From Talaromyces rugulosus (lineage: Eukaryota > Ascomycota > Eurotiomycetes > Eurotiales > Trichocomaceae): a stretch of DNA of 64,000 nucleotides. The notes below the pieces were generated by a model, which saw nothing but the letters and a program-made list of their open reading frames with translations, ran no database searches and was not told the origin of the DNA. Below, piece by piece: positions 15,177-52,221 of this stretch. The stretch is from NCBI RefSeq assembly GCF_013368755.1, contig NC_049565.1, forward strand, positions 2,542,001-2,606,000, in the 5' to 3' direction. Every line of letters starts with the position of its first letter. Position 1 is the stretch's first letter. The translations under genes were made by a program, and so were the position numbers.

Positions 15177-17277
15177 TTAAGCTTTCTTCAAATCATTGTC
15201 CACAACATCTTCCAAGATCGTCTCTCCTCTCCTCTCCGCCGCGAGTTTGGCAAGCTTTAGTCGTCTCGTGTCACGCTCCGTGTCCCAAGTCACCCACCAC
15301 GCCACCAGCGTCAAGATCATGCACAGGCCTACTAGGCCCATAGCAACGGAAAAGGGCACGATGTAGCGTGGTGAATATTTGCTTTTGAACATTTGTGGAC
15401 CGATGGCACCCCCGATCTGTCCGTAGCTATTGACGAAGCCGATAGAGAAGGCGGAGCCCGTGGCTCGCGAGGTGGTTTGTACTCTCCATGGCCTTGTTAT
15501 CACAATAGTTAGCCATATATCAATTGATATGTTAGATGCCAGTTTATGGTATAAAGAACGTACCACATGACAGGGTACCATCCTGCAGTAAAGGCATTTC
15601 CGATCAGCGTTACGGCATATACTCCACCTACGCTCGGATAGGCAACAAAAAGACCGTAACAGATCATGATGATGACTAGGAAAGTGAGTGGATATAGCGG
15701 CCGAGGTATCCGGCTGCGGTCTGCCATGATACCTGTAATGGCAATGAACAGGAGACCGCAGGCCGTGATAGGGAGATTGAGCAATTGAGCTTGAGCAATG
15801 CTCCTGAAAAAAAAAAAAAAAAAAAGTCAGTCATGCTCATGGACTCGAAAAAGTAGTATTCAAAACTTACGTATAACCGAGGTCAGCAATGACGGTTGAC
15901 TGGTAAAAAGTGACGCCGTTGGTTCCAACAGTAAAAGTAGCCCAAATTAACGTGAACAGCCACAGCCTCACGTCTTTCAGGGACTGAACTACTTCACGGA
16001 GGTTAAAGTTTTGCTCGCTAGCACGAGGAGCATTGGATGGTAGTCGCGCTTGGATAAACTTCTTCTCTCTCTCGGTCAACCATTTCGCTGTCTCGGGGAC
16101 TGAATTGCATATTAGCAGCTAGTACGTATGTAAAAGTCTCTGCAGGGATAGGTCGTACAGTCTGGGAGCAGGAACCAGATGGCAGCACCGAAAATCACAG
16201 TTGCAATGCCTTCCGTGAGAAATAACCTGGAATAAGTTTAGTGTGGAAATAAGAAGAGTGGGTTAAAAAGTGTGCTACCATTGCCATCCGGAAAGCCCTC
16301 CTGCGCCAGATACAGTGTCAAATGCATAAGCAAGAAGGCCACTGAAGATACCCGAGACGTTTCCGCAGATATCTGTAAATAATGAGTCAGTAAGAGATAA
16401 TTTGAGAATAAATCGAACGTAACCCACAAAAGTAGAGCAGCCGTAAAGACATTTCGTCTGGGCGATACCAGTAAGTCATCTGGAGAATGACACCGGGAAA
16501 CTGTCCAGCCTCGGCCTATACTGGTGTAAGTATTGAGTTCACATATAGATGTTTTTTTTTTTAAATCATGCCACATATTGACAAAACAAAAAATCAAAAT
16601 CAACAAACGTACCAGGCCTAGTAAGAATCGCGTTGTATATAAACCGCCTTTATTCTTCACGGCAGCATTGCACATAAGAGCGATACCCCAGCTGATCATA
16701 ATTCTCGACTGCCATTTTGAAGGAGAAAATCTCTTGAGTAGTAAATTCGAGGGTGCTTCTAAAACAATGTATGGGACCTGACATGCATGATTAGCGAGAT
16801 GTCCAGGTCAAGTTCTCTGTCGATATCTTACATAGTAAAGGACAGTCACGAGGTTGTACTCGTCCGATGTGATTCCGAGCTGTGTCATTATGTTCTGATT
16901 TGTTCCCTCATTCATTATTCGAGCATTGGATGCCTGCAAAGCTATTAACCCCCAACACTTGACTGACTTAGAATTATACTCACATTGTTGCTGTCCAGAT
17001 TCTTGAACATAAAAATGAGTGAGCAAAGCGTCATCAACCGCCAGTCAATCTTGCGTAGCAGCTTCTTCTCCTCTTCTGCCGTGAGCAGTGTCCTCCCACT
17101 CATCAATTCCGGATCGTAGCCATCAATGCTTTCCTGAGTCAATGAGGCTTCTGTGAGAGCCTGGCCGCGTCTGGCAAAATGGAGTAGCTCGTGGCTGCCA
17201 TCGCTCTCACTGGTGGAGACAATATCAGTAGCCGTGCTACTACCCACGACCTTGGCCTCGTTTTCTTTGCCTGCCAT
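15177..17277 (-). CDS. MFS transporter, Dal5/allantoate permease-like
   Basis: A multi-exon gene with about eight coding exons. The first three were placed exactly: 17277-16984, 16933-16832 and 16777-16613, each ending at gt(g/a)agN or gtacgt donors; later exons continue to the TAA at 15177. The translated exons give twelve hydrophobic segments typical of the anion:cation symporter branch of the major facilitator superfamily. The N-terminal cytosolic tail is acidic and ends in KKLLRKIDWRLM, a hallmark of this branch. Exon 4 begins AEAGQFPGV and later TM segments include SFSIGFVNSYGQIGGAIGP. Substrates in the family include allantoate, nicotinate and other carboxylates; none can be assigned here. 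An in-frame ATG 36 bp upstream (17313) is an alternative start. One intron has a long poly-T on the gene strand (15806-15824). Confidence 0.85.
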
Positions 17278-20326: not shown

Positions 20327-23300
20327 TCATGGATCCACTTCATGACTACCTGCCCTTCTCCTGGCTCCCAAACTAAGCAGCACCTCAACCATCTCAGCAT
20401 CCTCACCCCTTTCTGCTTCTTCCAAGGGAGTGCCGTAGTTCTCTGAAAATGAGTTTAGATCTGCACCTGCCCCTAGAAGAAACTCCACGGCTTCAATGTG
20501 GCCATTACCAGCCGCAACCTGAAGGGCGCAATCAATATTTGTGGCTCCATATTTCAGAAGAAGTTTTATATCTTCCACTTCACCGGTCATCCAGGCTGCT
20601 TCAAGTAAAGAAGTCTCAAAATCATTTGCTCCGCGCTCTAGCAAGAGCCTGACGACTTCGGTGTTACCGTAACGCACCGCAGCCTGCAAAGCGCTACCGT
20701 ACTCACCAGTGCCAGGCAAGTTCACATCCGTTCCATTATCAAGGAGCCGTCGAACAATCTCCAAGTTTCCTCCTACTGCAGCAGCATAAAATGCATTTCC
20801 ATACTCACCACCTCCAAGATTGAGGTCAGCACCGGCTTGTAGGAGGTATGTAACTAACTCTTCTCGCTGGCATGCTATGGCAGCGAAAAGTGGTCTTCCA
20901 TAATACCCGCCTTCAATGTTGACGTCCGCCTTAGCTTCAACTAATTGCTTTACCACATTTACGTGGTTTAACTCGATTGCAATCTCAAAGGTGTTTCCGC
21001 CCTCTTTAAATTGAAGATTAGGATCTGCTCCTTGCCCAAGAAGCAGTGCTATAGTATCCCCTTGATCTCTAAATGCTGCAATCCAGAGCAGTGTTTGTGA
21101 TTTAGCATCTGGGGTATTCACTGTGGTTGCCAAATCATGTGGTGACCTGCTTAGTAAATTGGATAGCAGAAAGTTCAGCCCAAAATAGGTAGCTAGATGT
21201 ATGCCTGACCAGTTTCTGGTTTCCGTTTCTACACTCCATTTGACTGAGCTGTGCATAGCTTGAACGGAACTGGCGATAAGTGATGTGTTATCAAAAAATT
21301 TTTGTGCAAACTGTTCGATTTGTCGTTGAACTCCCCGTGCATGCTCTCCCCAGTAGAGAGCTGCGTAATCAAGGAAGACATATCTGTTTGATCTCGCAAC
21401 AAACGCGTCTTTATTCACACAAAGGCCGGTGGTAAAGGGAGTAAAGCTGAGATATGTCAAGCAGCACTTTGATATCTCTAAATGCGCGCAATCTATCCAC
21501 ATTGCTTGTAAATATTCGAAAAACTTTTGGGTGGTGAAGTGCACTATCTGCACAGTATTGTTGTATCGATTGAGGGTAACTAGCCCTGCACAAAGAGTCA
21601 AAAGCTCTTCAATGCATGGAAAACAATTCTCTTGTAAATCCATCTGATTGAGTTTTACTGAGAGAGCATGTTGAAGTTCCACAGTAGTCAATGCTCGTTT
21701 TGCATGAACAACCCATGAAATAATTCTGTGCGCCCAGTCACGGTCATCTTCGTTTTGGGAATCAATTCTCTCCATGGTCATTAAATATGCTCGAGATAGC
21801 GCATCTGAGCCGTCTTGGAGTTCCTTTAAGGTTTTAATAACATCCAATTCTGTTCTTTTGTGTTCTAACAGGTTAAGGTGAAGTGTAGCTGGCAAGAACC
21901 TAAGAGTCAGAAATCAGTCAGAGCTCAAACTTGTGACACAGTTGTAAAACTTACATGCCATCTGTTACAAGCATAATGTGGTCTTTGATTTTTTCCTGCA
22001 ATCCATGATTTCGCTTCACAAATGACGGAAAGCATGTAAGACACTCATTTATGTAAAGTTCTATGTCGCCAGGATCCGCACGAATTTCTAATCGAATACA
22101 CCTTTCGAACCCATAATCCGAAAGCCCAGTTGGACGGCATGTGATTAGTAAACTAATATCAGCTTCCCTTTGTAAGCGTTGAAGAGAATTTACCAACTTG
22201 CTCTGAACCTTTTCTGAGCACTCGTCAAGACCATCTAAAACGAAAAACACCCTTCCGAAGTGAGAGCTAAGTTCGATAATTGCATCCTCAACTTCTTTAA
22301 CAGAGGGTGTAGATTTGGTAATATTGAATTCTGCGTAAATTCTCTCTAGAAGCGGAGGAATACGTTCAAAACTCTCCGCTATCTGTCTGAGAAAGGATGA
22401 CAGAATTCCCTTTACTGTCTGTTGTAACCGTCGATTGTGCTCGCAATATACAAAGACGCATGCGATGTCACCGGACTTCTGGGCTTCTTTTAATACTTTT
22501 ATGACCATTGACGCCATAACGGTCTTTCCGGAGCCAGGAATTCCCTGGCAAAGGAGAGTTCCTACTTCACTTTCCAGCCACGTTCTGAATTCGAGAGACA
22601 TAATAAACCAGCTCCCCGTTCCTGGTTGCTGCTTTTCAATGGCAATAGAATGGCTTGCGTAATCTTCAACAGACGATAACCAATCAAGGATTTTTTGACG
22701 TTTTGACGTGTCAGCTTCTAGCAATAGGTATTAGACATATTACTCGGGAGAAATCCATGCAATTCAACGCACCAATCAGTAAATGATGGAGATTTTGATC
22801 CAGTCTGGAAATGTCTTCCTGTACTTCACAAGTACAATGAGTGCTCCGTAAATTGTGTCCTTCTAATTTTATAGTTTACTACTCACAGTTCTTCGTAATA
22901 TCCATCGCTCTTTCGCTTGAGCTCAGTTTTTGAGGAGTTATATCAAGGAGAAGTTCTTTGGCATATGCAGCAGAGGTTGCCGCAGCATAACCTTGCCAGA
23001 TGTCGTTTTTGTGGGCGTCCGAATAGTCGGAGATTCCTCTGATAACAAGACATGGAAAATCATCCATAAGGCCAGCAGCTTCCATTTCAAAGCACAAGAT
23101 GTCGTTGTCTTTTTTCAGTCGTTCTCTTGTAGCGCCATGTTTGATAACGCAATCCGCAGAGCCAATCAAGCCATAATAAACAACCGGATCAAGAGAGTTT
23201 CGTAATTTGCGATTCACAACTCGTTTTACATCACATTTAGAACAGTCTCCATTGAAGCTCTCGCAATCGTATGTCGCGTAAAAGAGAATATCGTTGGCGG

Positions 23301-23999
23301 CACCAGGGTATTGGAACTTTTCCCGCAATTTTGGTTTATCTTCAAGCATTTTGGACACAAATTTGTTAATGGCGTTATCACGTTCCAAATGTGACGACTG
23401 AAGGTCGGAGACTGCATTCCTGAGAATACGTGGTGGTTTGTTCAATGATCCAGTCCGCACAAATTTACCATTATTATTTATTTTTCCACGGTCATATTGA
23501 ATAACACCTCCTGTGAATCTGTTAAAATTTAATCGAAAGTCGAATTCGGTCTTTCAAGGAAACAAAAACCAATCAAGGAGAACTGACCATGGGTACTTTC
23601 CGCGTGGCTAACTACAACATCACCAAGACGGATATCTTGTTTAGAACTTGGTACGCCGCCCCCGATGCCAACCATCAAACAGAAACGAATAGAACAAAAG
23701 CTTCGGAGCATATCCTTTGCTGCTGTTGATGCAGAAGCCCTCCCGGTCGCTCCGCACGTGATAACCACATTGTGGTTACCTATTCTTCCCAGAGTATAAG
23801 AGTTCGTGTCGTTATTATTTTGTGGAATCCTGGGATGGATAGCATCGAGCATTCCTTTGGCTGCTGTTAGTTCGATTGGAAGAGCACATATCCATCCTAC
23901 TGTATAGTTATCCTGTGTCAAAAGTTCCTCCGTGAGTCGAGTCCGCTTTGTTATTCGCTGATCTGCAATATCAGACTCGTATTCTCTTTTGTTGTTCAT
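20327..23999 (-). CDS. NLR protein: PNP-like, NACHT, ankyrin repeats
   Basis: Five exons, 23999-23588, 23510-22887, 22823-22773, 22717-21955 and 21899-20327, join in frame to 1140 aa. The N-terminal ~345 residues form a phosphorylase/nucleosidase-like (PNP_UDP) domain: YTVGWICALPIELTAAKGML, MVGIGGGVPS, then LCFEMEAAGLMDDFPCLVIRGISDYSD. After a short linker comes the NACHT NTPase with P-loop GIPGSGKTV (~residue 420) and Walker B VFFVLDGLDEC. A helical winged region follows, and about eight ankyrin repeats (GNLEIVRRLLDNGTDVNLPG-like) make the C-terminal third. Fungal NLRs of this layout are linked to heterokaryon incompatibility and innate-type recognition. The exon 3 acceptor is an aag, so that 17-residue linker is the least certain part. 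No disruptions are seen. Confidence 0.9.
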
Positions 24000-24799
24000 T
24001 TTCAGAATTAATTCAACAGAATGAAAATATAAATGCGATATTGGCGGGCTCTTTAGCGCGTCGAAGTGGCCCTGTCAACGAGATACTAAAAGGATAGGAA
24101 TTTTTGTGACGCGGCGGTCAATAGCATTTTAAGGCATGAGGGATCTTAGTAATGGCCAATATCACATGACATTAATTTAATTGTGGCTGAGTATGCATAA
24201 AGATGGACTGCGCAATAATTAATGAGCTCTGCTGCCTACATTAGCGGCCCACGTCGCAAGCCAACCAGAAAGATGAACTATCGTTGGGGGCCTGTTGAAG
24301 AATTCAAAACGGCAGTACGTACATATTTCAATCATAGAGAGTACAAACGTACTTATCGCTGTTGCATATTTTTATTTTTTATTTTCTGCTTGAGTGTTAA
24401 AAAGAATCTTTTGTTGCCTTAAGCCTGGGTGTTCTGCGTTATTAAGGTAAGGATGCCCAGTTCGAGCCATATTAAATGAGAGCGCTTATTGAGTCAGATG
24501 ATATCTTGAATTAGAGCATGGACTTAATCCGAGACTTGGTTTTAGTGAACTTTGACAAAGTAAATGTAGAAAAATCTAAATACAGATTTACAGGGTGCGC
24601 CTGTTACAAGACCAAAACAATATTTAATAACGGTAAAATTCCAGGACTAGTCGGCATTTTTATCCATCCCAAAATCCTTTCTTGACAGAATAATGCATCT
24701 GTGGTTCTATGTGGTTTGAACGGCATCTGAAACCCCACGGTTCTGCGGTGCGGTGCAGTTCAAAAGTCCCAGAACCTCAGAACCGCACCATTCCGAGGC
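24000..24799. other. Intergenic region upstream of the ankyrin NLR
   Basis: About 800 bp, AT-rich, holding the NLR promoter at its left end and the 3' region of a small secreted protein gene at its right. Near 24700-24790 short direct echoes of ggttctg/cagaacc occur. No gene seen. Confidence 0.4.
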
Positions 24800-25174
24800 C
24801 TAGCTATCATTGTCGCCCAAGGTATCCTTAACGCAACGAGCGGTATTGAAAGGAGATCCCAACTCAGACGCATGATCCGCGAGATTGTAGCATTGCTTAG
24901 ACTTAAAATAGTCCCCATCGTAAGCCCATGTGTCATACAGAAAGTTATCAACACAATCCGTTGACTCGTAGAATCCAATTCGATACAACTTGGAACCCCA
25001 TCCATTCTCTCTATAAGAACGGAACGGAGGGAGGTTTTCTTTGGTATCGATGTTCGCAAGGTAGACATTGTACTGATCGCCCGTGCAGTCAGGGCCAGTA
25101 AAAGTTGAGACCCCGAGTGAAAGGGCACCTTGAATCAAGGCGGCAGAGGTAAGAAGGATTGTAGAGTAATGCAT
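24800..25174 (-). CDS. Small secreted Cys-containing protein, paralog A
   Basis: A 124-residue single-exon protein with a signal peptide (MHYSTILLTSAALIQGALSLG). The mature part has an N-terminal TGPDCTGDQYN motif, a central SYRENGWGSKLYRIGFY segment, FLYDTWAYDGDYF and four Cys (DCTG, STDC, KQCY, ARCV) that could form two disulfides. I do not know a named family; length, secretion and Cys content are those of candidate effectors or other apoplastic proteins, and a beta/gamma-crystallin-like fold is only a guess. A clear paralog lies ~1 kb away on the other strand (26205-26564). No frameshift or stop inside. Confidence 0.75.
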   Translation of the reverse strand: MHYSTILLTSAALIQGALSLGVSTFTGPDCTGDQYNVYLANIDTKENLPPFRSYRENGWGSKLYRIGFYESTDCVDNFLYDTWAYDGDYFKSKQCYNLADHASELGSPFNTARCVKDTLGDNDS

Positions 25175-26204
25175 TGTGGGAAGTATAAGGTTCTGATTGG
25201 AAGGACAATATAGTTATGTAAATATGAAGAATGACTGTAGTAATGTAAAGTATGTCTTGAATGAGGATATAGAAGCCATTTTATATGTGATTATAGGATA
25301 TATAGTTAATGATACAGCTTATATAATACGATACCTGGCCGCCAATCCGCTATTGCATGTCGTTTGTTTTTATTATGGGCTTGGGCTGTAAGCGTATTCC
25401 TCCTCGCCACGGGTGGCTGTATACTTTCCACCCCATCCCGCAATACACTTGACACTGACCACGCTCAGAGTTGGTCTAATGCCTTGCCCATGGACAAATT
25501 ACCATGTAGTACACAACAGTGAGACACACATAGCATTAATAAAACGCAATACATTTGATACGTAATACGCTTTATTATGTTGTGTGGGGAGTATACTAAC
25601 GTATTTTATAAGTGGGTCACATAAGCAAGCGGGTCAGCCCTAAGGTCAGCTCACCCCAGCTGAACCTCTCATCTGCTCCGTAGCTATATACCAACAATAG
25701 ATAAAGTTTGAAGACCTACCTGACAACTAGCGTATTGAAATTAGTCCTTAGAGATGAACCATGGATGGAACTAGCCTCCCGGTGGAGCCAGATACACCAG
25801 CCTATAGACCAATCAGACGCGCCATTCTAAGATACACTGAATAATTTCAAATTGGGAATAAAAGATAGAAATCCCGTAACAGGGCTAGTAGGTAGAAATT
25901 TGAAATCAATGGCGTTGGTGGCTGTATACATCAACTGAGTAGGTACTTGATGGGGGTGAATGTGAAATACGACATGCAGAGTAATACGCAATCGTTGATA
26001 GCATTGGTAATACGCAGTACGCTCTAGTCATCGTATTACGTAGGGAACAGACACTATATTTCCTATAAACTTGTATATGAGCTAGAAGTGTCACTCGCTG
26101 TACATATAAAGACCAATTCCTACATCTCAACCTGGAGCATCTCTCAATTCACCAAATTCAAACATTTCGCCATTCCGTTTATATCAATTGTTTCAACCTT
26201 GAAA
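25175..26204. promoter_or_regulatory. Shared upstream region of two secreted-protein paralogs
   Basis: About 1.03 kb between divergent paralogs. It is rich in tac-g-containing words such as gtaatacg, found at ~25562, 25982, 26007 and 26033 (in varying orientation). No coding frame is supported. Confidence 0.5.
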
Positions 26205-26564
26205 ATGCATTATTCCAAGATCCTTGTCACCTCTGCCTTTATCCAAGGTGGCCTTTCAACCGGAATTTTGACCTACACTGGTCCTGATTGCACAGGCCAA
26301 GTACAAGAATACACCATCTTGTCTGGTTGCTTAGGCGCGGTGCCTCGATTCCAGTCTTACAGGGAAAATGGATGGGGTCCTCACGAAGAGCGAATTGCGT
26401 TTTATAGTAAGACTGGTTGCGATGAAGCGGGATTCCTGTATGATACATGGGCCTATGATGGAGATTATTTCCATTCACACCAATGCTACAATCTCGACGG
26501 TCATTCGCCGAATGGGGAGCAGTTCGCCGTCAGTATCTCGCTCGAGTCTGAGATTGTGATTTAA
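26205..26564 (+). CDS. Small secreted Cys-containing protein, paralog B
   Basis: A 119-residue single-exon protein beginning MHYSKILVTSAFIQGG, a signal peptide nearly the same as in paralog A. Shared blocks are TYTGPDCTGQ, SYRENGWGPHEERIAFY, FLYDTWAYDGDYF and HQCYNLDGH. The last ~15 residues diverge: paralog A ends with a Cys-bearing ARCV segment, whereas this one ends in SISLESEIVI without Cys, and an extra Cys appears earlier (LSGC). The altered C-terminus may reflect an indel. The start was chosen because it aligns with paralog A's start. Function unknown. Confidence 0.72.
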   Translation: MHYSKILVTSAFIQGGLSTGILTYTGPDCTGQVQEYTILSGCLGAVPRFQSYRENGWGPHEERIAFYSKTGCDEAGFLYDTWAYDGDYFHSHQCYNLDGHSPNGEQFAVSISLESEIVI

Positions 26565-27163: not shown

Positions 27164-28594
27164 TCAGCTCTGTTCTAAACCGCGATTTTTCATCGGCAAC
27201 GGATGATTTTTGTTATCCACCAACTTTGATTCCTCATCAAGGGGGCGACTAGTAGACCTCAAGACTTCGGTATCATCCTGAGTTGTTCTCTGCGACCGAC
27301 CGCCTCTACCGGACGGAGTCATTGAATCGAGGCTGATGGTACTTCGGACACTGCGAATGATAGTGGCCAACGAGATATTGTCAAATAAACCGCGGAAAAG
27401 AGGGAGGTTAGAGGCGATATTGGCTAGACCGGCTTCAATCATACACCAGTACAGGATTGTGCCCACAGTCACTAATTAAATATGTTAAAAGGGAGGGGCA
27501 CACATAGAAAGAATACCGGGGACGTACAATTAGGGTCCACGTTGGCCCTGTACCCACCACCGGATATTTGGAATGAGATGATAATCTTGATGATAGACGC
27601 AATAACGGAACTAGGCGGAGTCAGAAAAATCGCCTAAGTGCGTTTTTTTGTGATTACATACATGGAGCCGATTAGGAGAATTCCTGTAACTGCCAACTTT
27701 TTTGGCCATCTCATGTGCATGGCCCAAATCTAGTTCTCAGTTAGCTAGTGCTCTGACGTAAAACTTCTTAGTGATAATACATACAATTGGCATCGGCATC
27801 AACCAAATCAAAGCATTTGTCACCGCATCACTCACAACAAAGGCATTTTCCATATCTAAGCTCCGACCACAGTATACGGCCTTGACAGTTGGGCTGCCCC
27901 ATTGTGCCGAGACATGGGTGCCGCAGGATAAAGTAACCACGACAACAAATGTGATTGTCCATGCGGCACTAATGGCTATGGCAGCGATGGTAACAAAATC
28001 GAAAGGTGACCCATATAGAACGACGACGAAAAGGCGGCGATAAAGGAATATGATGCTTAATTTGAGAAAACCGGCGGCAAGAATCAAAAGAATAATGACG
28101 GCGAATTGCACCTGCTCATGTAGGACGGATCAGTTTTTGACCGTTGACATGAAAATAGGCATGTCCATACCGTTCCCTTCAGCTTTGTAATTGCGCTGAC
28201 TGTATTCATTTGCTCCTCGGAGGTCAGACTAGACTGAGATGGCGTGGGGTAGCCAATGGCCTTTCCATGGACACCTATCACCTGTCAGTTAGCTGTGAAG
28301 GAAGTAGTGAAAGTGAGGATTTTTCTTTTAATTACCGATAACCAACGCGATCCCCATACCGATCGTAAAAACCTACAGATATTAGCAGGCGGACAAACGC
28401 AAGGCTACTAATGCACATACCAGGGAGGGAACCGTAAGCCAGTCATCGATGCCGATGCCTTCGCGTTGGTTGCGCCTTTGTTGCCATCGCAGCGCTAAGA
28501 AGACAGTTCCCAGCACTGGTAGAACAATCGCGGCGGCATACACATCATCAGCGGTAGCATACGGGACACTGAGCTCGCTGGTTTGGGTGGCCAT
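27164..28594 (-). CDS. PTH11-like seven-helix integral membrane protein
   Basis: A multi-exon gene (about six exons) from ATG 28594 (MATQTSELSV) to the stop at 27164. The translated exons give seven hydrophobic helices: AAAIVLPVLGTVFLALRW, a helix containing VFTIGMGIALVI, VQFAVIILLILAAGFLKLSI, a helix after FDFVTIAAIAISAAW, VVSDAVTNALIWLMPMPI, a helix around LAVTGILLIGSMAVIASI and a last one around GTILYWCMIEAGLANIA. The sequence GIDDWL and the pattern of the last helices match the fungal rhodopsin/SAT4 (PTH11-related) membrane family. The C-terminal ~70 residues are a polar cytoplasmic tail. Such proteins are putative sensors and often sit in secondary-metabolite loci. An upstream in-frame Met (28720) exists but the chosen start fits the topology better. 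Intron positions were judged by eye. Confidence 0.78.
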
Positions 28595-28931
28595 AGTGGT
28601 TGCTATGAAAAGCAATACTATAGAGATGATGGCAAGGTGAGACCCCCGATGTTGTAGTTGTATTATAATTGTACTGCTTGTAACGCCGGTATGGGAGCAC
28701 AGACAAATGTTTGTGGCCAATTACGTTTAGATTTAAACTCTGACCAATTACCTACAAATATGTACCAAGTTCAGCCATGCCAATAATAACCTGCGCATGG
28801 ATTATGCTCGGGTAGTATTTGTATTCGGGCCAGCGTCAAGACATTATCGAATCTCCTTTAACAGGAGTAGATCTCTTGCACGATTCACGTCTAAATTCCT
28901 GGGAAATATTGTCGGCCTTGTCACCATCGTG
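28595..28931. promoter_or_regulatory. Divergent upstream region, receptor and UstYa remnant
   Basis: About 340 bp between the PTH11-like gene and the start of the UstYa-like pseudogene on the + strand. No independent gene. Confidence 0.4.
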
Positions 28932-29799
28932 ATGATCGAACTAGAGGAAAACAAATCGCTCTTGCCGGAGACGAAAGATGTGGTCGAGAAAGGAGCCAGG
29001 CGGCCGTGGTATAGGATCGTTGCATAGCACTGGTTAGCGGCGATCTGCATCTTGACTTTGTCCCTGTTGCTTAACGTGTTTCTTATAACATGTTCGTCGC
29101 TCGCGAGATCGGAGTACAGCGCGTTTGGTATGGCCCTTATCCCTGACCTTCGGAGTAAATGTCTGATGCGACAAAGCTAGGCTCACCCCCGAATTGTCTG
29201 TCCCATGGGTATCCAAGTCACCATACTTTGGCGAAGGCACTGACGAAGAGATTGACCGTGCTTGGGATGCGATCAGTATCGACAGTGGCTCTATCTCCCT
29301 AAGCCCTGCATATACTGATGAAATGGGGTTACCGCGGGCTCAAGAATTTCCGCTGGATCGTTCCAAAGGAATTTATTTACTGAATGGGTACCATAGCATG
29401 CATTGCTTAGTATGAAAAATTGGTTTTTCTCACCAATAATTACCCCCCATTGACGGGAATGGACAGAAAACTATTCGAGCCTACACCCGTCAAGTCGACC
29501 AGGGCCTTCCAACAGACCAACCTGCGCACCATATGCTCCATTGTCTAGACGCATTGAGACAAGATGTCGAATGCTATGTAGACGATACGCCGAGGTATAC
29601 GGGCTTTCAGGGCCAGGGGAGATCGGGCACTGGCTAAGTGCGCCAATGTCGGGATTGGAGTCGTTTAGAGGTATGGGCATAGCAACATACGGCGTGCTGG
29701 CATTATATTCTAGAACTGGAGAAGGACGGGAAATCCAATCTTGAGGAATTCAAGTTTTGCTCTCAAGACGTAAATAACATAACAGAAGCAACGTCGTAG
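28932..29799 (+). pseudogene. UstYa-like (DUF3328) oxidase pseudogene
   Basis: UstYa-family proteins are single-pass membrane oxidases that cyclise fungal RiPP and some nonribosomal peptides. From ATG 28932 the frame reads a polar N-terminus ending RRPWYRIVA, then TAG (29025-29027), then HWLAAICILTLSLLLNVFL, the expected TM helix. An intron with an atypical gtttgg donor probably joins to LTPELSVPWVSKSPYFG and DEEIDRAWDAI. The two family HxxHC motifs are present as YHSMHCL and HHMLHCLD, separated by a good intron (gtatga..acag, ending at 29470). Near the end the frame meets TAA (29635-29637) and TAG (29680-29682) around VRQCRDWSRLEVWA and QHTACW, the usual family C-terminus. Each stop is one C-to-T change from CAG or CAA. 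Motifs otherwise survive, so inactivation looks recent. Confidence 0.82.
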
Positions 29800-30106
29800 A
29801 TGTCTTTTTTCTTCCCCCCGGGTTCATTTGGTATTACGATTCAGTGTCGGACAATATTCATTGCGACAATATCATAGATATGTACAGTTGAATCAAACAG
29901 ATGGTCAAAAAAACATAATTTGTGGTGACAGAAATCAATGACAAATTAAATCAAATAGGCGTTGCTATACTGAAAGAATTTGGATTTGAGAGCAGAACAT
30001 GAAAATAGAATGCGAAAACCGCAATTAATTGCGTCCTGTCCAGAATACTCTCTCACTTCTCATGTGGTCTTCTGCCACCAAATATCCTTCTAGATGACAC
30101 TAGGAT
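29800..30106. other. Intergenic region between UstYa remnant and peptide gene
   Basis: About 300 bp of AT-rich DNA between two convergent genes, presumably 3' ends. No gene seen. Confidence 0.4.
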
Positions 30107-30344
30107 CTAGTTTTTGAACCATCTAACAGGGGGCGGCGGTCCCTCCTCGGGATCTTCACGTTTAAACCAGACATCTGGTGATGGAGGGCCACCCTCGTTT
30201 TCTCCTATCATCCATCGTCTCGTTATTTTCATCTTCATATATAATTCAAGGGGATTTTATTTTTGACGTACTACGAATCGCATGGGCTTGTACACCGATG
30301 GAGACCAGGGTGGCAAGTAGCAGGGAAATGAGCTGGACGCGCAT
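30107..30344 (-). CDS. Secreted Kex2-type repeat peptide precursor, 56 aa (candidate RiPP precursor)
   Basis: Exon 1 (30344-30272) encodes 24 residues forming a textbook signal peptide, MRVQLISLLLATLVSIGVQA then HAIR. A 67-bp intron (donor gtacgt at 30271, acceptor gatag at 30205) leads to exon 2 (30204-30107). The mature part holds two related units, ENEGGPPSPDVWFKR and EDPEEGPPPPVRWFKN. The first is preceded by Arg-Arg and ends in Lys-Arg, both Kex2-type dibasic sites; both units share acidic starts, a Gly-Pro-rich middle and Trp-Phe-Lys. Fungal RiPP precursors of the dikaritin type and some pheromone precursors have this layout. Neighbours are a UstYa-like pseudogene (convergent) and a P450 (divergent, 540 bp shared promoter). 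An ordinary small secreted peptide is the alternative. The intron and reading frame are inferred; transcript evidence is lacking. Confidence 0.62.
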
Positions 30345-30883
30345 TTCGGATGGATGGGTTCGGATAATCGCTATAGGATCGTGTGTCACTCGAGATCTCA
30401 GTGTGTTTGCAAACGAGTCGTTTTCAATTAACCCTATAAAAATAACGAGTTGTCGTGTCTGTCCATACTATCAATTGATGGATGAGGCGTATCTCTTCGT
30501 TGATATTAGTAGATCGCGAAGCTGAACGGCGACTGGCGCCAGCCTCAGCCCTCGGGGCTAATTATACAGGGATAATCATGCTTGTGTAACGCATGCCCTA
30601 CGAAATACGGGCTGTGACACCAATAGCATCGCAAAAATACTGCAGTCGCACAAGGAGCTGAGAAATATAGGCCGAGACGCCAATCGCATCGTAAAGATAA
30701 AGTTAGGGCTGGAGTGGGGACGTCGATCCCGTTGTCGTATACGATCAACGCTATATTTAACTAGGCAAGTATGCAAAACATGCAAACACGCCTATAGGTG
30801 GTAAAGCTGCCCCATGATCGGTTTGTCCTGCCTAACTGTATCCTGATCACAAAAGGACAACACTGTTGGGAAAGACAGTAGAC
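30345..30883. promoter_or_regulatory. Divergent promoter between peptide precursor and P450
   Basis: About 540 bp shared upstream region. It includes an imperfect 38-bp direct repeat (30602-30639 and 30662-30699, 30 of 38 identical, 60-bp period). A TATA-like tatattta lies at ~30750 on the P450 side. Confidence 0.5.
30602..30699 (+). repeat. Imperfect 38-bp direct repeat, 60-bp period
   Basis: Copies 30602-30639 and 30662-30699 both follow gaaata..gg.cy.gagac.ccaat.gcatcg.aaa.ata; eight positions differ, six of them transitions. They sit in the middle of the divergent promoter of the peptide and P450 genes, where they could be duplicated regulator sites or RIP-altered repeat copies. Confidence 0.65.
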
Positions 30884-32533
30884 ATGGCGGACTTCTCATG
30901 GGCCACCTCCATCCTTGTCGCCGTCATCACTCTTGTGCTCAGCAGAAAGCTGTTGTCGTTCGTCAGCTTCAGCGCCCGCTCTCGACGCAATGGCTGCAAG
31001 GCGCCTGCGCGGTATCCACACAAGGACCCGATCCTCGGACTGGATTATTTCATGACTCAAATGAAAGAGCGTAAAGAGGGCAACTCGCTGGCAGGCCAAC
31101 GCGACCGTTTTGCGCGTTTGGGCCACACGTACGAGGTGAATTCGTGGGGTACTCGCACCATTCAGACAATGGATCCGCAGAATATCCACGAAGTGCTAGT
31201 TACCTCCTTTGACAAGTTTGGCGTGCAGGAAATGCGGCTCTCAGTCGGGATGCCCTTTCTTGGACCGGGAGTCTTTTCGACAGATGGGCGGTATTGGGCC
31301 ATCTCGCGTAAGATGATCAAACCGGCCTTCTCTGTCAACCCATTTATTTCCGATTTCGAAGCCTTCGACGTGCATGTGGACCGCATGCTGAAACGGCTGC
31401 CGAGGGATGGGTCAACGATTGAACTGCAGAGCTTGTTGAAGTTTATGGTATGCCAACCCTATCCAATGAAATAGAACCAGCCGTAGTACTTAACGGATGT
31501 AGTATTTAGATCACTCGACGGCCATGATCTTTGGAAAGTCGACAGACATTCTTCTGCAAAAGACCCTTGATGAGTCTTCTAGTGAACTGCTAGAAACGTA
31601 CTCAGCGGCAGTATCACGACTTGGTCTGCGTATTCTTCTCGGTCGTCTGTGGATTTTCAATGCCTGGGACAAGGCATACGAAGCCCTTGCACGGCGGATA
31701 CATGCTGTAATTGACAAATATATTGACGAAGCAATTGAACGACGACGGCGGCGGCGAGAAAATCCTTTGGGCCAGCCTGATCCATACCAGCGTAGTATAG
31801 TCGATTCACTTCTCGCAATATCCGGTATCCGTGAAGAAGTTCGCGACCAACTTGTGAATATTTTCCTACCTGCTCGTGATGCGGCAGCTGTTGGGCTGAG
31901 TGCCTGTTTATTCCATTTAGCGCGGCATCCTGATGTGTGGAATAAATTGAGGGCCGAGGTACTCTCTATCCAGGGACCTCTGACTCGCCAGGCTCTTCTG
32001 TCTTTGCCATATATGCAGGCTGTCTTAAACGAGAGTAAGTTTGGCCTTACTGCACCGCTTTTTTTTCTTTCTTTAGGTGTTAACTCCGATTAGGTCTCCG
32101 GCTCAATTCCCCTGCCGCTGGAAACCGACGACGGTGTACCCAAGACTGTGTCCTCCCTACAGGCGGCGGCCGCGACGGCAAATCCCCCGTTTTCGTATCC
32201 AAGGGTGACGGCATCGAAGTAGTCATGGGCGCGATGCACTATGATCAAGAAATCTGGGGTCCTGACGCCGACAAATTCCGCCCAGAGCGATGGTTAGAAG
32301 GAAGCGCCGAGGAACTGAGTTCATTCTACATGCCATTTTCAATCGGCAAGCGCATTTGTCCTGGTAAAGATCTTACGCTGGCTGAAAATGCCTATGTGAT
32401 TGCCCGGTTGATGCGACAATTCAAAAGTCTGGAGAATCATGATCCAGTGATGGAGTTTGTGGAACTGAGTAAATTGACCACGGAGAGTCGAAATGGGGTT
32501 TTGGTTGGTTTAATACTGGAAGATGCTTCATGA
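30884..32533 (+). CDS. Cytochrome P450, CYP52-like, with atypical I-helix
   Basis: Three exons, 30884-31447, 31503-32034 and 32094-32533, give 511 aa. An N-terminal membrane anchor (SWATSILVAVITLVLSRKLL) is followed by a Pro/basic linker. Conserved P450 features are a WxxxR-like helix C (YWAISRKMIKPAF), ExxR in NESLRL (rebuilt across the second intron), FRPERW and the heme loop FSIGKRICPG with its Cys ligand. The sequence recalls the CYP52/alkane-hydroxylase-like clan (SACLFHLARHPDVW after the I-helix). The I-helix oxygen-activation motif, usually AGRDTT, reads PARDAA: both Thr are Ala and the Gly is Ala. This may impair or redirect the chemistry. The gene shares a divergent promoter with the peptide precursor. 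A membrane-bound ER oxidase acting on a pathway product is the inferred role. Confidence 0.87.
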
Positions 32534-33698: not shown

Positions 33699-35053
33699 TT
33701 GCCGATTGTCCCCTCTTCCAAAAAAAGATACCCCTTTCCTCAACTCATAGATAGACTTTTACCCCTAGCTGGCCTTGAGAGTGCGGGGTGTGAATTTAAA
33801 TATGAGCCGGGAGTACCTGTATTTGCAGCTATCCCCTTACCATCACCATCTATCCTTTCCAAAGTCAACGCTGCGGAAGTAATGACGGTTCATTCTTCAG
33901 AGAATCGGGCTCCAAAAAACATTCACGAAGCGAGGCAGTCAGAAACACCAGTGAAATTGGAATTTTTGAACGGCGCTTCTCTTATACTATGCAAGTAGAC
34001 CAAACTTACACCTTCGTGCTAGAATCGTGGGCCGCGACGCCCGAAGCACTAGCCAAATCAATTGGAGGTCTAGCGATCCAAGGCTCCGGTGTCGGCTTCT
34101 TTGAACATGTGGACATAGAGGCACGGATCGCATCTGCAGCAAACTCAGCTGCCAACGCAGATGTAGTCATCGTATTCACTGGGACAACTGCAGAGTTTGA
34201 ATCCGAAGGCTACGACCGAGACACACTAGACCTTACACGCGAACAATACCAACTTGTCGCAGCAGTCAGCGCGGCAAAGCCAAAACGCGGTACCGTGGTG
34301 ATCAACTATTCGGGTGCGCCGGTGAACATGATTCCCTTCGTGGCTCATGACAGTGGCACTGAAGCAATTCTTCAAGCATGGTTTCCGGGTCAAGAATATG
34401 GCCGTTCCATCGCGTCGCTGCTCACGGGTGAGATCAACCCCTGTGGCCACCTCCCTATGTCCTGGCCAAAGCGGATTGAAGATAATCCTTCATACGGAAA
34501 TTTCCCCGCCGTTGATGATGTTATCCGCTACGAAGAGGGAACATTTGTTGGATATCGACATTACGACCTCCCCAACGCCCCAGAGCCTTTATTCCCTTTT
34601 GGCTTCGGTCTATCCTATACGAACTTCGAAGTTCGTAGTACTAGCATTGCTGCACCGGAGATCTTAAGCGATGTGGACGGTAAAATCACCGTTTCTGGCC
34701 TCGTAGCCAACACGGGCGCTTGCGCTGGAAAGGTGGTTCTACAGTTCTACGTACAGTCTCCAACACCAGTCGGCTTTGTATTACCGTCTGTTGGCAACAG
34801 ACTGTCAGAATCGAACTCGGCCCGTCCGATCAAGGAACTCAAAGCGTTTGAGAAAGTTCTGTTGCAACCTGGCGAGAGTAGAAATGTCTCTGTTGAGCTT
34901 GATCGCTATGCTGTTAGTTTCTATAATGAAACGGGCACTTGTTGGCAAGTACTAAGGGGCACGTATAAATTGCTCGTTGGATTTTCTGCAGCGGAGATTG
35001 TCGGTGAGGTGGAATTCAGGGTTGAAGATGACTTTACATGGAATGGGATTTAG
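33699..35053 (+). pseudogene. GH3 beta-glucosidase fragment, catalytic barrel missing
   Basis: Only the C-terminal half of a glycoside hydrolase family 3 enzyme is present. The frame 33989-35053 includes the alpha/beta sandwich (ADVVIVFTGTTAEFESEGYD, then AWFPGQEYGRSIASLLTGE and GHLPMSWPKR) and the fibronectin-III-like tail (PEPLFPFGFGLSYTNFEV). An upstream frame, 33699-33998, appears to continue the same protein (PVKLEFLNGAS) but is offset by a frameshift near 33990. The N-terminal TIM barrel with the catalytic nucleophile Asp is absent: upstream DNA is AT-rich and non-coding. I therefore read this as a truncated relic. A short functional derivative cannot be excluded since the 354-codon frame is intact. 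Confidence 0.78.
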
Positions 35054-46749: not shown

Positions 46750-49700
46750 CTATAAATGAAACTTTAGGAAAGAAACCCTCCCAGAACTATGTCCAAGAAT
46801 TAGTGTCCCATCATTTCCAATTACTACATATGAATCGGTTGGTCGATAACCGGAAGGAAGCCATAGTAACCTTTTACCCCGAAGTGTTACCCAGTGATCT
46901 TTTTGTATAAATAGACCAACTTTAGTTCCAGATAATAAGTTGAACCAGGTGCCATTATTATACGAAGTCTGAATGTTGATGGTTCCCAAATTGGTGTTCA
47001 GATAACAGCTGTCTTCAGTAAAATTGAGATCAGTAACCCCACCATCAAGGGTTAGACTCTGGTGCAGAGTTCCCGTGGAAATATTCCAGAGCTTGGCTTC
47101 ATTATCATAAGATCCTGATGCTAGCAGCTTGCCATCTGGTGACAATGCCACAGAAAAAACACCTTCTAAATGGTCTTTTAGAGTATTTTTCAGGGCTCCT
47201 GTAGCCACATCCCAGATCATGATTGTGTTATCAAAAGAGCCTGATGCCAGCAGTCGGTTATCTAAAGAGAAAGCCACAGAAAGTACCCCATCTAAATGGC
47301 CTTCAAAAGTCATCTGCAGAGCTCCTGTAACAACCTGCCAGATCCTAACAGTTCCATCTTGGCTGCCTGAGGCTAGCAACTTGCCATCCGAGGAGAATGT
47401 CACAGAATACACTTCTTCTAAATGTCCTTCAAGAGTGTTTTCCAGAGTTCCTGTAGCAGTGTCCCAGAGCTTTATTGTATTATCATCAGAACATGATGCT
47501 AGTAGCCGGGTATCTGGTGAAAATATTACAGACTCAATGATAGATAAATGCCCTTTAAGAGTCTTTTGTAAGACTCCTGTAGTATAATCCCAGATTTTTA
47601 TTGTTCTATCATTAGAACCTGATGCGAATAACTGGCCATTTGGCGACACTGCTATACATTGCACAGGACCTAAGTGATTTTCAGAAGCCTGTTGCAAAAC
47701 TGATATAGAAGTATCCCAAAGCCTGACTGTATTGCCAGCAGAACCTGATGCTAGCAGCTGGCGATTTGGTGAGAATTTTATGGAAGTGACTCCACCAAAA
47801 TTGGCTTCAGAAAGTTGTTGATAATCTTCCGTAACAGTATTCCAAAGGTGAATGTTCGACGAAGAGTTGCCGAACGCCAGTAGCAGTCCATCCGACGAGA
47901 ATGTCACAGACCCAACCGTGGCTGCACATTTAAAAGTCTTCTTTAGAGATCCTGTGACAGTATCCCAAAGCGTAAAAGTGTTATCTCTGGAGCCTGCTGC
48001 TAGCAGCTGGCCATCTGGTGAGAATTCCACGGTAAAAACTGAATCTGAGTGACCGTTAAGAGCATAATGTAGAGTTCCTGAGATAGTATCCCAGAGTTGG
48101 AGTATCCCATTTGTGCAACCTAACGCTAGCAGCCGGCCATCGATGGAAAATGCCATAGACAAAGGATACACGTCAGGTAGGTAGCCAAGAGTCAGTGGAT
48201 ATCTTGTGGTAGTGTCCCAAAGTTCAATTATACCGCCAGTATAGCCAGATGCTAGCAAGCGATTATCTGGTAGAAATAATACAGACATAATTCGTTTTAT
48301 TAGGGATTCAAAAGTGTGTTGCAGAGCTCCCGTAGTATCCCAAATTTTGATTGTGCTATCATTAGAGCCTGACGCTAGCAGCAGACCATCTGGTGAGAAT
48401 ACTACAGAGTTGACTTTATCTGAATGGCCTTCGAGAGTCTGTTGTAGAGTTCCTGTGGTATTCCAAATTTTGATTGTGCTATCATCAGAGCCTGAAGCTA
48501 GCAGCAGACCATCTGGTGAGAATGCTACAGAGCCGACTCTATCTGAATGGCCCTCAAGAGTTTGTAATTCTGCGCTCCAGGATTCGTCTACCTTTGGTAG
48601 CCCGCGTACCCAATCGGGTCGATCCTTGATGAATTTCTGCCTAACTATCGAGTTTTCTGGAGCGAACATGAGTGCCGAAGAGTATAGTTGAAGTGGTGAA
48701 CTATCGACTATTTGTAGATTTCGAAGAATGAACCGTTTCGCATCATGTAGAAATTGTGGTATTTTAGATTTTATATCCTTTTATACGTATTAGTGATTTA
48801 TTAATATTATTATTGGCCCGAACTTACTTGTGTAATTGAGTGTAAAATATCTATTGCTGCGACGACTTCAGAAATAATATTCAAAATACTCATTGCTTCC
48901 ACCCAATGAAGAAAATGGGTTTCAAGAAATTGAAAAGCATCATTTAATTCATGGACTGGATTCTTGCTTTGAGTCAAATGATATGCCCAATAACGACATG
49001 AGTACTCCAATTCGAATGGGAGATACTGATTAATAGAATGATCATCTATTTCAGTACGTTGTGTACCCTCTTCTAGTACGAAACAGATATTCCTTTTTAA
49101 ATAGCGGTCCATGATCTTCAGACATTGCATGAAGAGCTTATGGTGTATTTCTTTCTCGTCTATCCAAAATGGCGTCTTCTCACGAGTTTTTGAGTCTAGA
49201 AGAAAATCTCGAAACGAGAGATGAAAGAGCTTCACTGGCGTAGTGTCGTCATTTGGCACGCTAAGGACTGAGTGAAGTGGACCAAGTCGGATTATAACTA
49301 AGTCCTTTGAGATGCCAGTAAGCTCCGAAAGTGGGCTTATTGGAAGTGGGGAGTATAGCAAGATAATAGTACCAACTATTTCTCGAAATTGGGCGACCAG
49401 CTGCTGTTTCTTTGCATCGATTTGGTTCGTGAGAAGTCGATTTAACACAGGCAGGTAAGTTCCGCCTAACCAAGATTCTTCGTGTTGATGTGTAAGAATC
49501 TCAGAGAGACTGTCAATCGGGTCCCAATTAAGATCTCCTAGTATACGACATATCGTAGCGGCAGAGATGAATAATGGAACTGACATTGTAATCAGAGTCT
49601 GTATGTGAATCTCTCCAGGCCAGCCAGGAGGAAGGAATCGGCTCTCTCTGATTTCTGACAGCCTGTGCTTCAGATATAAGCCTATGTCATGCTGTATGAC

Positions 49701-51571
49701 CGGCTTAGGAATTTCGTGAAGGATCAGATCTTGACGATTATTATCTGCTAGTCTCTGAAAACCTAGACGAACTGGCGTTTCAGGTCTGCTTGTTAAAAAG
49801 AATCGGAGCCGTGTAGAGGAGTTTAGCACCTGTGCTCGTGCCAGGAGTCGAAGAATGACACGAATATCATCTTCTCGCTTGCACTCGTCTAGTGCGTCAA
49901 TAACTATTATAATAGTAGATGGCTGATGATCGGCCGATTTAATGTCCGATAGTGGTTGAAGAATCAATTTATCAAATTGTTCCGTTAAAGATTGCGTTGC
50001 AATAATTGGATTACCCTCAAGTACCTTCTTGACACCGGGTATCAGTTGAGGAATTTTGATCACTAATTGTCTAATGATTGTCGGAAAAAATTTCCTTGCG
50101 TCACCTCGATCACCCTCGCCCCTCTTGAAGAAGAAGCTTGCGCCAAGTAACGCTTTATTTTGCAGAGACCTAGCCACTGTACGTGATATTGTCGATTTTC
50201 CCGTCCCTGCCATCCCCTTTAACCAGAAAATACCTTTGCCCTGCAAGTCGTCAACCCATTCAGAAATATACTGGAGAAGTTCAACCCGTGTTCCAGGAAG
50301 GCATTCTTCTTCATGCTGGTTGTCAAAAGAGCCGAAAGAAGCCCCCTCAGCAATTGGTAGTTTCGTCAAGTCAATTTTCAGGTCTATGGAATCAACTGCG
50401 CCTTGAATAATACTTTTTCATGGTTAATTTTTGGATTAACTAGCGAATTTGTTGATCCAACCTGCCTTTGATTTTGTTGAATTGTCATCATTGATTTATC
50501 GAGCAGGTATTGCATACTACTCGTCTGTTCGACGTCTTGATGGTCTACCTTGCTGATAATAGCTTTGCAGTAGGCTGCTGCAACAGCCGCCGCATAGTGA
50601 TGCCACCCATCCTGTTTGTGGGTATCTGCGTAGTCGCATATCCCTCGAATAACGAGGCAAGGGATTTCATCCATAATGCCGGCTGCTTCCATTTCATAGC
50701 AGATTGCATCTTTGTGACCTCGGCGTAGCCGTTCGCGATCCAATGGGTTCTTTATAACACCACTCCCGGAGAGAATAAGACCTCGATGGACCACAGGGTA
50801 CCTGTTATCGCGAGATTGACGATAAACAACTTTCTTTTCCCTAGAAGTCTCGCAACTACTGCAATCACCGCTCTCCTTGACGTGATGGAAATCCTGTTCG
50901 AACAGAACATCGGCTGTGTTTGGTCGTGAAAACCCGGATTTCTTTTCGATAATTTTCAGGATTCTTTTTAAAGGACTCCGTTTCATTGTTTCATCTTCCA
51001 CCAGTGATCCATCTGCACTGATCAAAATTGGTGGAGGCTTATCAAGAGATCCTTTAAGAACGAATGTATTTTTCTCATATTTCCCAAAGTCATATTGGAT
51101 GACGCCGGGATGATTTTCTTGGGGAATACTAATAGCGACATCGCCTAGTCGAATATCATGTTCTGGAAGGTTGGGTATACCGGCTCCAATGCCAACTATC
51201 AACGCAAATCGGATATTGGGAAACTGCTGGCTGACGGTTGAAGCACATTGGGCGGCCTTCACAGTTCCCATTTGATGAGGCCGAGCTATCACAATATTGT
51301 GATTTCTGATACGACCAAAAGAATATATGTATCTCTGTGGCCCTAAGGCTTTTGAACGGCATGAGAATTCCTCGTCTAGACTATACTTTACCGCCACACT
51401 CTCATAGGGTAGCGCACAGAATATCGCTATCGTGATATGTTCGGAAGGTATCTCCTTAAGTGCGTCGTAATCGAACTCGTCCTCGTCGGTGGTTGTCTGA
51501 ACAGCAGATGAAGGCTGTCTTAACGGCATAGTTATCAGCTCGCGTGATGTTTTCCCTTTATGATCCGCCAT
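46750..51571 (-). CDS. NLR protein: PNP-like, NACHT, WD40 repeats
   Basis: Three exons, 51571-50518, 50401-48828 and 48777-46750, join in frame to 1551 aa. Exon 1 encodes a PNP_UDP-like domain (IAIFCALPYESVAVKYSL, IVGIGAGIPN, ICYEMEAAGIMDEIPCLVIRG). Exon 2 carries the NACHT NTPase: P-loop GMAGTGKST near residue 410 and Walker B TIIIVIDALDEC. Exon 3 has about twelve clear WD40 repeats plus two degenerate ones, consistent with two seven-bladed propellers. The 116-bp first intron (gtatgc..caag) is inferred because the PNP and NACHT frames differ; a frameshift is the alternative. Repeats 1 and 2 are almost identical, typical of fast-evolving fungal NWD proteins of the het-E/nwd family. The likely role is non-self or xenobiotic recognition triggering cell death. 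Confidence 0.87.
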
Positions 51572-52221
51572 TATTAACTTGCGTCTCGCTGGTTCCAGAG
51601 TAGAACGTCAAAATATGAAATACTGATTTTTTTGAGGCGTGAAATCATTATGAAGAGCGGGAAAAGGACAGAAGTAGAATTTTGCCGCTAATTCTGCAGT
51701 CCTGTTTGCTAGTTTGATAGATTACCCCGCTCTGGATTACGCCAATTTGACACTATCGCAAGCAAGGCAAGAGAACTTTTGCATCTAAGATCAATATGTT
51801 ATAAAACATTCCGATCCTAGACGACTCGGGTACCAAAAGAATCCACGACTAAAGAGTTTCCTGGTTGGGAAGGCGGATAGCAAGTCAATTTTTTATTAGA
51901 CTAAAAAACCATTAGAAGGGTTTTGACAAACAAAGGTACATGGCAGTTACCAGGAATATCTCTTTTTTGGTACAGTGGGAAAACATGTCATCAGTTTTCT
52001 TAGTCTCTTGTCCAGTGTGTCCAGTACACCCTAAGGTCAAGCAAACCGAGTTTAGGGTAAGTAGGGCAAACATGGGCCAAATAGACGTTTTGTTTCTGTT
52101 TCGTTTTAGTTCATGACCCATACTGACTTCGCACTGGTCGTCAGTCGGTAATATCTCCAATTTAGACTTTCGTGCAATCTCGTTCTTCAGACACGGGATT
52201 TCGCCGTTCTATAAATCGACG
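51572..52221. other. Intergenic region upstream of the WD40 NLR
   Basis: About 650 bp, with the NLR promoter at its left end. The 17-bp word at 52052-52068 is shared with 33318. No gene. Confidence 0.4.
52052..52068 (+). repeat. 17-bp dispersed word, copy 2
   Basis: ttagggtaagtagggca, identical to 33318-33334; flanking DNA also looks repeat-like (gtccagtgtgtccagtacacc). Confidence 0.5.

What the first reader, a model, noticed from the sequence alone, without database searches (positions are those of the whole stretch)
27164..32533. Candidate undescribed RiPP-like (dikaritin-type) locus: secreted repeat peptide, UstYa relic, P450 and receptor
A hidden two-exon gene (30107-30344, minus) encodes a 56-residue precursor: signal peptide, then two related units ending in Trp-Phe-Lys, separated by a Kex2-type Lys-Arg. 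It lies next to a UstYa/DUF3328 gene remnant with both HxxHC motifs and shares a 540-bp divergent promoter with a P450; a PTH11-like receptor adjoins. Established knowledge: ustiloxin, phomopsin and asperipin pathways combine Kex2-processed repeat precursors with UstYa-type oxidases. The unit sequences seen here (ENEGGPPSPDVWFKR and EDPEEGPPPPVRWFKN) are not a known core to me. That these genes form one pathway is inference.
Basis: partly seen in the sequence, partly recalled or inferred. Interest (0 to 1): 0.88.

Follow-up and report, generated by a model that had tools for sequence, protein, structure and literature searches.

The report
Two-unit secreted peptide gene, decayed oxidase
A fungal chromosome carries a tiny, easily missed gene for a secreted peptide precursor made of two related pieces, beside an intact P450 enzyme gene and a damaged copy of an oxidase gene of the kind that makes cyclic fungal peptides, so it looks like a cyclic-peptide pathway that has lost or is losing its key enzyme.

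Summary
Minus strand 30107-30344 encodes a two-exon, 56-residue precursor: signal peptide, Arg-Arg site completed by splicing, ENEGGPPSPDVWF, Lys-Arg, EDPEEGPPPPVRWFKN. Its repeat score tops the window (45; next 37) and 0 of 22,419 random pairs reached 40. A gene finder recovered it and found nothing at its threshold in 20 random 64-kb sequences. The units differ at nearly all synonymous but few nonsynonymous sites. The same genome has three more Kex2-repeat precursors beside UstYa genes, one also two-unit. The UstYa neighbour keeps both HxxHC motifs, but stops interrupt its matching frame. The P450 gives an open 511-residue model with an unusual I-helix. So the dikaritin reading is partly supported: right kind of precursor, class-defining enzyme damaged, pathway unproven. 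Relatives could not be searched. A further lead: 6 of 25 UstYa loci have a 7TM receptor gene within 6 kb (expected 0.99), and this receptor's paralogues are enriched among them; but against P450 genes as controls the excess is not significant (p 0.08).

The parts
30107..30344 (-). two-exon precursor gene (exon 1 30272-30344 signal peptide; intron 30205-30271; exon 2 30107-30204 with both units)
   Evidence: repeat score 45, gene finder, pS 0.96 against pN 0.28 between unit cores
30164..30202 (-). unit 1, ENEGGPPSPDVWF, followed by KR (30158-30163) and preceded by RR completed across the splice junction
   Evidence: translation; coordinates by arithmetic from it
30110..30157 (-). unit 2, EDPEEGPPPPVRWFKN, C-terminal, no dibasic site after it
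   Evidence: translation; coordinates by arithmetic from it
28917..29796 (+). UstYa/DUF3328 relic, convergent with the precursor; HSMHC 29392-29406, HMLHC 29530-29544; stops at 29635 and 29680 in the matching frame, another at 29025 in a putative N-terminal stretch, and a frame change near 29110-29180 that may be an intron or a shift; both outer limits are judged by eye
   Evidence: E 6.3e-19 over 29215-29688, the tool reading through stops; two pieces 28.0 and 26.6 bits, cut-off 25; the two N-terminal pieces no match
30345..30883 (.). 539-bp stretch between the divergent start codons of precursor and P450
   Evidence: promoter function is inference
30884..32533 (+). cytochrome P450, exons 30884-31447, 31503-32034, 32094-32533, 511 aa; ESLR and FSIGKRICPG present, I-helix reads PARDAAA
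   Evidence: (PF00067: second and third pieces 52.9 and 81.2 bits, first piece 21.7, just under the cut-off of 22.8)
27164..28594 (-). multi-exon 7TM receptor of the Fung_rhodopsin (PF20684; PTH11-like by recall) family; exon structure not fully resolved
   Evidence: 130-aa exon, 40 bits, cut-off 27; last exon 11.6 bits, under cut-off

Best explanation
The locus is a small peptide gene cluster of the Kex2-repeat/UstYa (dikaritin-like) kind in which the oxidase has decayed while the precursor and P450 reading frames stay open. Shown from sequence: a secreted two-exon precursor model with two conserved units bounded by dibasic sites, an interrupted UstYa whose copper-motif residues are still readable, an open divergent P450, an adjoining 7TM receptor. 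Inferred: the precursor enters the ER, the signal peptide is removed after VQA, Kex2 cuts after RR and KR, a Kex1-type carboxypeptidase trims KR, giving ENEGGPPSPDVWF and EDPEEGPPPPVRWFKN. The acidic, proline-rich lead of each unit would be the recognition part and the aromatic WF end the core. When UstYa worked it would have oxidised or cross-linked the aromatic side chains; the product now is most likely a linear or P450-modified secreted peptide, or the pathway is in early decay.
For: Precursor reality. The layout (signal-peptide exon, short intron, repeat exon) is the same as in the heptameric YFIG precursor and, by eye, in a two-unit ALYAYI precursor whose second unit is also C-terminal without a dibasic site; both lie beside UstYa genes in this genome. 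UstYa identity. One kexin-type P-domain hit in the genome. Print: DUF3328 genes are commonest at the very next position to Kex2-repeat genes, and W with P occurs in one DUF3328-linked type (PMC7329392 section 7); HxxHC(x)nHxxHC forms a binuclear copper centre (PMC12435403 passages).
Against: Stops interrupt the UstYa matching frame, so no full-length oxidase is encoded here; a truncated product with both motifs, or another UstYa acting in trans, is untested. The units hold no Tyr, which 65.6% of repeats of DUF3328-linked precursors do, and W is not commoner in DUF3328-linked precursors (20.5%) than in unlinked ones (24.5%). No homologous precursor elsewhere in the own genome, no access to relatives. 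Splicing, co-regulation and peptide are unproven. The P450 is not closest to the P450 lying beside a UstYa pair on C1. The unit alignment used for pS/pN was chosen for protein similarity, which lowers pN somewhat.
Confidence: 0.6

Rival explanations
1. The precursor makes a linear peptide hormone or signal, never modified by UstYa; the relic is an unrelated leftover, and the adjoining receptor or another one perceives the peptide.
For: Units are intact although the oxidase is interrupted; no Tyr, and W content does not distinguish DUF3328-linked precursors; Umemura hypothesises that linear Kex2 peptides came first (PMC7329392 abstract); a PF20684 gene adjoins.
Against: In print UstYa genes accumulate next to such precursors, and three other precursors in this genome lie beside UstYa genes; no receptor-peptide link tested.
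Confidence: 0.2
2. The whole locus is dying: the precursor still has an open frame only because it is short, and nothing is produced.
For: Stops in UstYa; altered P450 I-helix.
Against: P450 open over 511 codons with heme and ExxR motifs; signal peptide, splice signals and all dibasic sites intact; units under protein-level constraint since their duplication, which however says nothing about recent decay.
Confidence: 0.15
3. The precursor is not a gene; the repeat is chance.
For: Short; no homologue found in the own genome; no RNA data.
Against: 0 of 22,419 random pairs reach 40 against 45 observed; 0 hits at 30 or more in 20 x 64 kb for the full gene model; synonymous-heavy divergence.
Confidence: 0.05

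Closest known systems
Dikaritins / ust-RiPS (ustiloxin, phomopsin, asperipin-2a, epichloecyclin precursors with UstYa/DUF3328 oxidases)
   Same: Signal peptide, dibasic-bounded repeated units, immediate DUF3328 neighbour with two HxxHC motifs
   Different: Only two units, no Tyr, UstYa interrupted, no tyrosinase, methyltransferase, peptidase or transporter among the 44 window ORF pieces scanned
Kex2-processed repeat proteins (KEPs) of Umemura 2020 (PMC7329392) and Le Marquer 2019 (PMC6339444)
   Same: Secreted, units between dibasic sites
   Different: Two units, below the three required by both surveys, so this gene type would be skipped
Two-unit ALYAYI precursor beside UstYa genes in the same genome (G000 C6, L056)
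   Same: Two-exon layout (by eye), two units split by a dibasic site, last unit C-terminal
   Different: Unrelated core; its best UstYa neighbour has an open frame without stops in the match
Ascomycete alpha-pheromone precursors
   Same: Secreted, Kex2-type sites, variable unit number
   Different: No resemblance to pheromone sequences known to me (recall); the pheromone gene of this genome was not identified

Membership tests
Dikaritin (UstYa RiPP) pathway | Precursor with signal peptide and repeated dibasic-bounded units | tested here: met
   (two units only; signal peptide by a simple rule, not SignalP)
Dikaritin (UstYa RiPP) pathway | Intact DUF3328 protein with two HxxHC motifs next to the precursor (class-defining enzyme) | tested here: not met
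   Sequence and both motifs present, but stops lie inside the PF11807-matching frame. A truncated product carrying both motifs is not excluded.
Dikaritin (UstYa RiPP) pathway | Tyrosinase, methyltransferase, peptidase or transporter in the cluster (not needed in later definitions, PMC12048977 passages) | tested here: inconclusive
   None among 44 window ORF pieces scanned; small exons and some ORFs not scanned
Dikaritin (UstYa RiPP) pathway | Side-chain-linked cyclic product | not testable with these tools
   needs LC-MS
KEP as defined in PMC7329392 | At least 3 tandem repeats of at least 8 residues between Kex2 sites | tested here: not met
   two units; criterion read
KEP as defined in PMC7329392 | Signal peptide | tested here: met
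   own simple rule; SignalP not available
Cytochrome P450 | PF00067, ExxR and heme-Cys motif | tested here: met
   (two of three pieces over cut-off, the first at 21.7 against 22.8)
Fung_rhodopsin (PF20684) receptor | Pfam match above cut-off | tested here: met
   40 bits against 27; complete exon structure not resolved

The most novel reading that the evidence does not exclude
A subfamily of fungal 7TM (PF20684) receptors travels with UstYa-type genes, so that such loci encode both a modified peptide (or other UstYa product) and its own receptor: a self-sensing peptide system. The present locus would be one such module whose oxidase has been lost while peptide and receptor remain.
Probability: 0.15. 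Interest if true: 0.8.

Novelty: new variant of a known kind. Interest (0 to 1): 0.5.

Why it matters
Two published surveys required three or more repeats in annotated proteins, so two-unit, two-exon precursors are invisible to them; this genome holds at least two beside UstYa sequences. That bears on the stated puzzle of UstYa clusters without a visible precursor (PMC12048977 passages). A locus with an intact precursor and a damaged oxidase is a natural case for asking whether such peptides can revert to linear use. The receptor link, if it holds in other genomes, would give candidate receptors for fungal modified peptides.

Tried and rejected
Own-genome searches found no second copy of the precursor. 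PDB search of the precursor and of the UstYa piece 29167-29412: no match. The idea that the P450 belongs to a UstYa-linked P450 clade was rejected: the P450 beside the UstYa pair on C1 is not its nearest relative (summed bits 286 for L045, 270 for L046, 261 for L050/L059). The idea that receptor-linked UstYa loci all carry a Kex2-repeat precursor was rejected: in the 12 loci scanned (L032, L058, L059, L061-L069) only one place scored 34 or more, 34 and 37 on its two strands, at chance level; the finder saw none in them or in L070-L073 either. Two UstYa-like pieces near receptors, in L064 and L069, gave no Pfam hit and were left out of the stricter test. Receptor enrichment is weak against P450 genes as controls (6 of 25 against 9 of 86, p 0.08; 5 of 24 against 9 of 86 without this locus, p 0.16); the 6-kb cut was chosen after seeing the list (at 10 kb 6 observed, 1.60 expected, p 0.006; at 3 kb 4 observed, 0.56 expected, p 0.0015). 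Organism: size and contig number made me think of Talaromyces (recall); an ITS-start pattern gave no use, PMC7151134 (abstract only) did not match, and the name stays open. Literature: no link of PF20684/PTH11 receptors with UstYa was seen in the listings, which show 20 of 978, 15 of 61 and 10 of 35 papers; listings only. A first P450 join was one base off and was corrected.
Full report
Observation. The minus-strand gene 30107-30344 is there as described: exon 1 with a signal peptide, a 67-bp GT..TAG intron, exon 2 with two units. The spliced product has RR before unit 1 (the second Arg codon is completed by splicing), KR between the units, and no dibasic site after unit 2.

Is it a gene? Three tests say yes. 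(1) Stop-free six-frame stretches of the window were scanned for similar peptides on both sides of KR or RR: 679 pairs, this one 45, the next 37; 40 order-2 Markov copies gave 22,419 pairs, none at 40 or above, highest 38. (2) A finder asking for signal peptide, optional short intron and similar dibasic-bounded pieces returned, in the window and loci L001-L073 (overlapping stretches of G000), only this gene and a heptameric YFIG precursor at 30 or more; 20 random 64-kb sequences gave none at 30 or more, highest 23. The finder missed two other evident precursors (L005, L056), so its sensitivity is limited. (3) Between the 12-codon unit cores 8.2 of 8.5 synonymous sites but 7.8 of 27.5 nonsynonymous sites differ (pS 0.96, pN 0.28), as expected for old duplicates held by protein-level selection; the alignment was picked for protein similarity, which biases pN down. 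There is no RNA evidence.

Benchmark in the same genome. The window lies at G000:C5:2542001-2606000 of a 35.76-Mb, six-contig genome. PF11807 (UstYa) gives 43 exon matches, 25 loci when merged within 10 kb. The stretches of about 1.5 kb on each side of the 30 matches given as loci contained three clear Kex2-repeat precursors besides this one: YFIG x7, ACAAVGGGSAAAACKR-type, and ALYAYI. The ALYAYI gene also has just two units, the second C-terminal, and by eye an intron between signal peptide and units. So the layout of the present gene has a counterpart beside a UstYa gene with an open frame.

Neighbours. On the plus strand, convergent with the precursor, lies a UstYa relic: pieces 29167-29412 and 29440-29634 each pass the PF11807 cut-off narrowly (28.0 and 26.6 bits, cut-off 25), and both HxxHC motifs are present. 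Stops at 29635 and 29680 lie inside the matching frame. A further stop at 29025 lies in a stretch that I take for the N-terminal membrane part, but that stretch has no Pfam match, and an intron there is not excluded; a frame change near 29110-29180 may be an intron or a shift. A truncated product with both motifs therefore cannot be ruled out. It is the only PF11807 match in the window. Its nearest own-genome relative, 42% identical, lies in the C5 UstYa cluster near the ACAAVGGGS precursor. The divergent P450 (30884-32533) makes an open 511-residue model with ESLR and FSIGKRICPG and an I-helix PARDAAA lacking the usual Thr; its first exon alone scores just under the Pfam cut-off (21.7 against 22.8), the other two pieces well over it. 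The 539-bp gap between the two start codons may be a shared promoter (inference). The receptor exon 27737-28129 passes the PF20684 cut-off. Among 44 window ORF pieces scanned with Pfam no tyrosinase, methyltransferase, peptidase or transporter appeared; small exons and some ORFs were not scanned.

Mechanism. Inference from these parts: ER entry, signal-peptide removal after VQA, Kex2 cleavage after RR and KR, carboxypeptidase trimming, release of ENEGGPPSPDVWF and EDPEEGPPPPVRWFKN. The genome has one match to the proprotein-convertase P-domain. DUF3328 enzymes form a binuclear copper centre at HxxHC(x)nHxxHC (PMC12435403 passages) and are needed for cyclisation in known pathways (PMC7329392). 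With the local copy damaged, the present product is probably linear or P450-modified, unless another UstYa acts in trans.

Comparison with what is known. Two surveys define Kex2-repeat proteins with at least three repeats (PMC7329392 section 13, PMC6339444 passages), so this gene would be skipped. In one survey 1758 of 7878 such genes (22%) have a DUF3328 gene among the 15 closest genes, most often the very next one; 65.6% of the repeats of those contain Tyr, which the present units do not, and Trp is no commoner with DUF3328 than without it (20.5% against 24.5%). A lichen study reports UstYa clusters without visible repeats and suggests, as one possibility, single-core precursors (PMC12048977 passages). 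I file the locus as a variant close to dikaritins, not as a member, because the class-defining enzyme is not encoded intact.

Receptor lead. 6 of 25 UstYa loci have a PF20684 gene within 6 kb; random placement and local shifts both give 0.99 on average, with no random or shifted set reaching 6 in 2,000 and 1,000 trials; at 10 kb it is 6 against 1.60 (p 0.006). With P450 genes more than 20 kb from UstYa as controls the contrast is weak (9 of 86; p 0.08, or 0.16 without this locus), so part of the excess may be a general feature of such gene neighbourhoods. Of the nine own-genome paralogues found with this receptor's main exon at E 0.001, three are UstYa-linked by the PF11807 search, against 2 of the other 96 receptors (p 0.004), or four counting one weak UstYa match (p 0.0004). 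The distance cut was set after seeing the data, family lists are lower bounds, and this is a single genome, so I treat it as a lead. No repeat precursor was found at the other receptor-linked loci examined.

Limits. Papers were seen as listings, abstracts, or the named sections and passages only.

Noticed in passing
window 24803-25213 (-) and 26205-26561 (+): Pair of divergently arranged small proteins with signal-peptide-like starts, 59% identical over 103 aligned positions; one has a sub-threshold MiAMP1 (antimicrobial) match, 17.2 bits against cut-off 26.
   Followed up: partly
window 20330-24074 (-) and 46753-51607 (-): Two NLR-like genes: PNP_UDP (one of the two hits sub-threshold), NACHT and either ankyrin or WD40 repeats, on either side of the locus.
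   Followed up: no
L018/L057 (G000 C1 about 2,037-2,038 kb): Heptameric Kex2-repeat precursor with YFIG units in two exons, beside a UstYa match.
   Followed up: partly
L056 1285-1613 (G000 C6 about 105 kb): Two-unit precursor with ALYAYI cores, two exons by eye, beside a UstYa gene with an open frame.
   Followed up: partly
L005 (G000 C5 about 3,950 kb): Precursor with alternating ACAAVGGGSAAAACKR and other dibasic-bounded units beside a UstYa cluster.
   Followed up: no
L058/L059 (G000 C1 3,593-3,600 kb): Same order and orientation as here: receptor (-), UstYa (+), then a second UstYa (-), P450 (+); no repeat precursor detected.
   Followed up: partly
window 31503-32034, P450 exon 2: I-helix reads PARDAAA where the two related P450s in which the scan caught this helix (of 11 related loci) read LAGRDTTA and FIGHDTIA: the usual Thr is missing.
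   Followed up: partly
window 33806-35050 (+): GH3 C-terminal and Fn3-like domains without a GH3 N-terminal match in the same open frame.
   Followed up: no
window 15180-15830 and 16241-16807 (-): Pieces that look by eye like a multi-exon membrane transporter, but neither has a Pfam match.
   Followed up: partly
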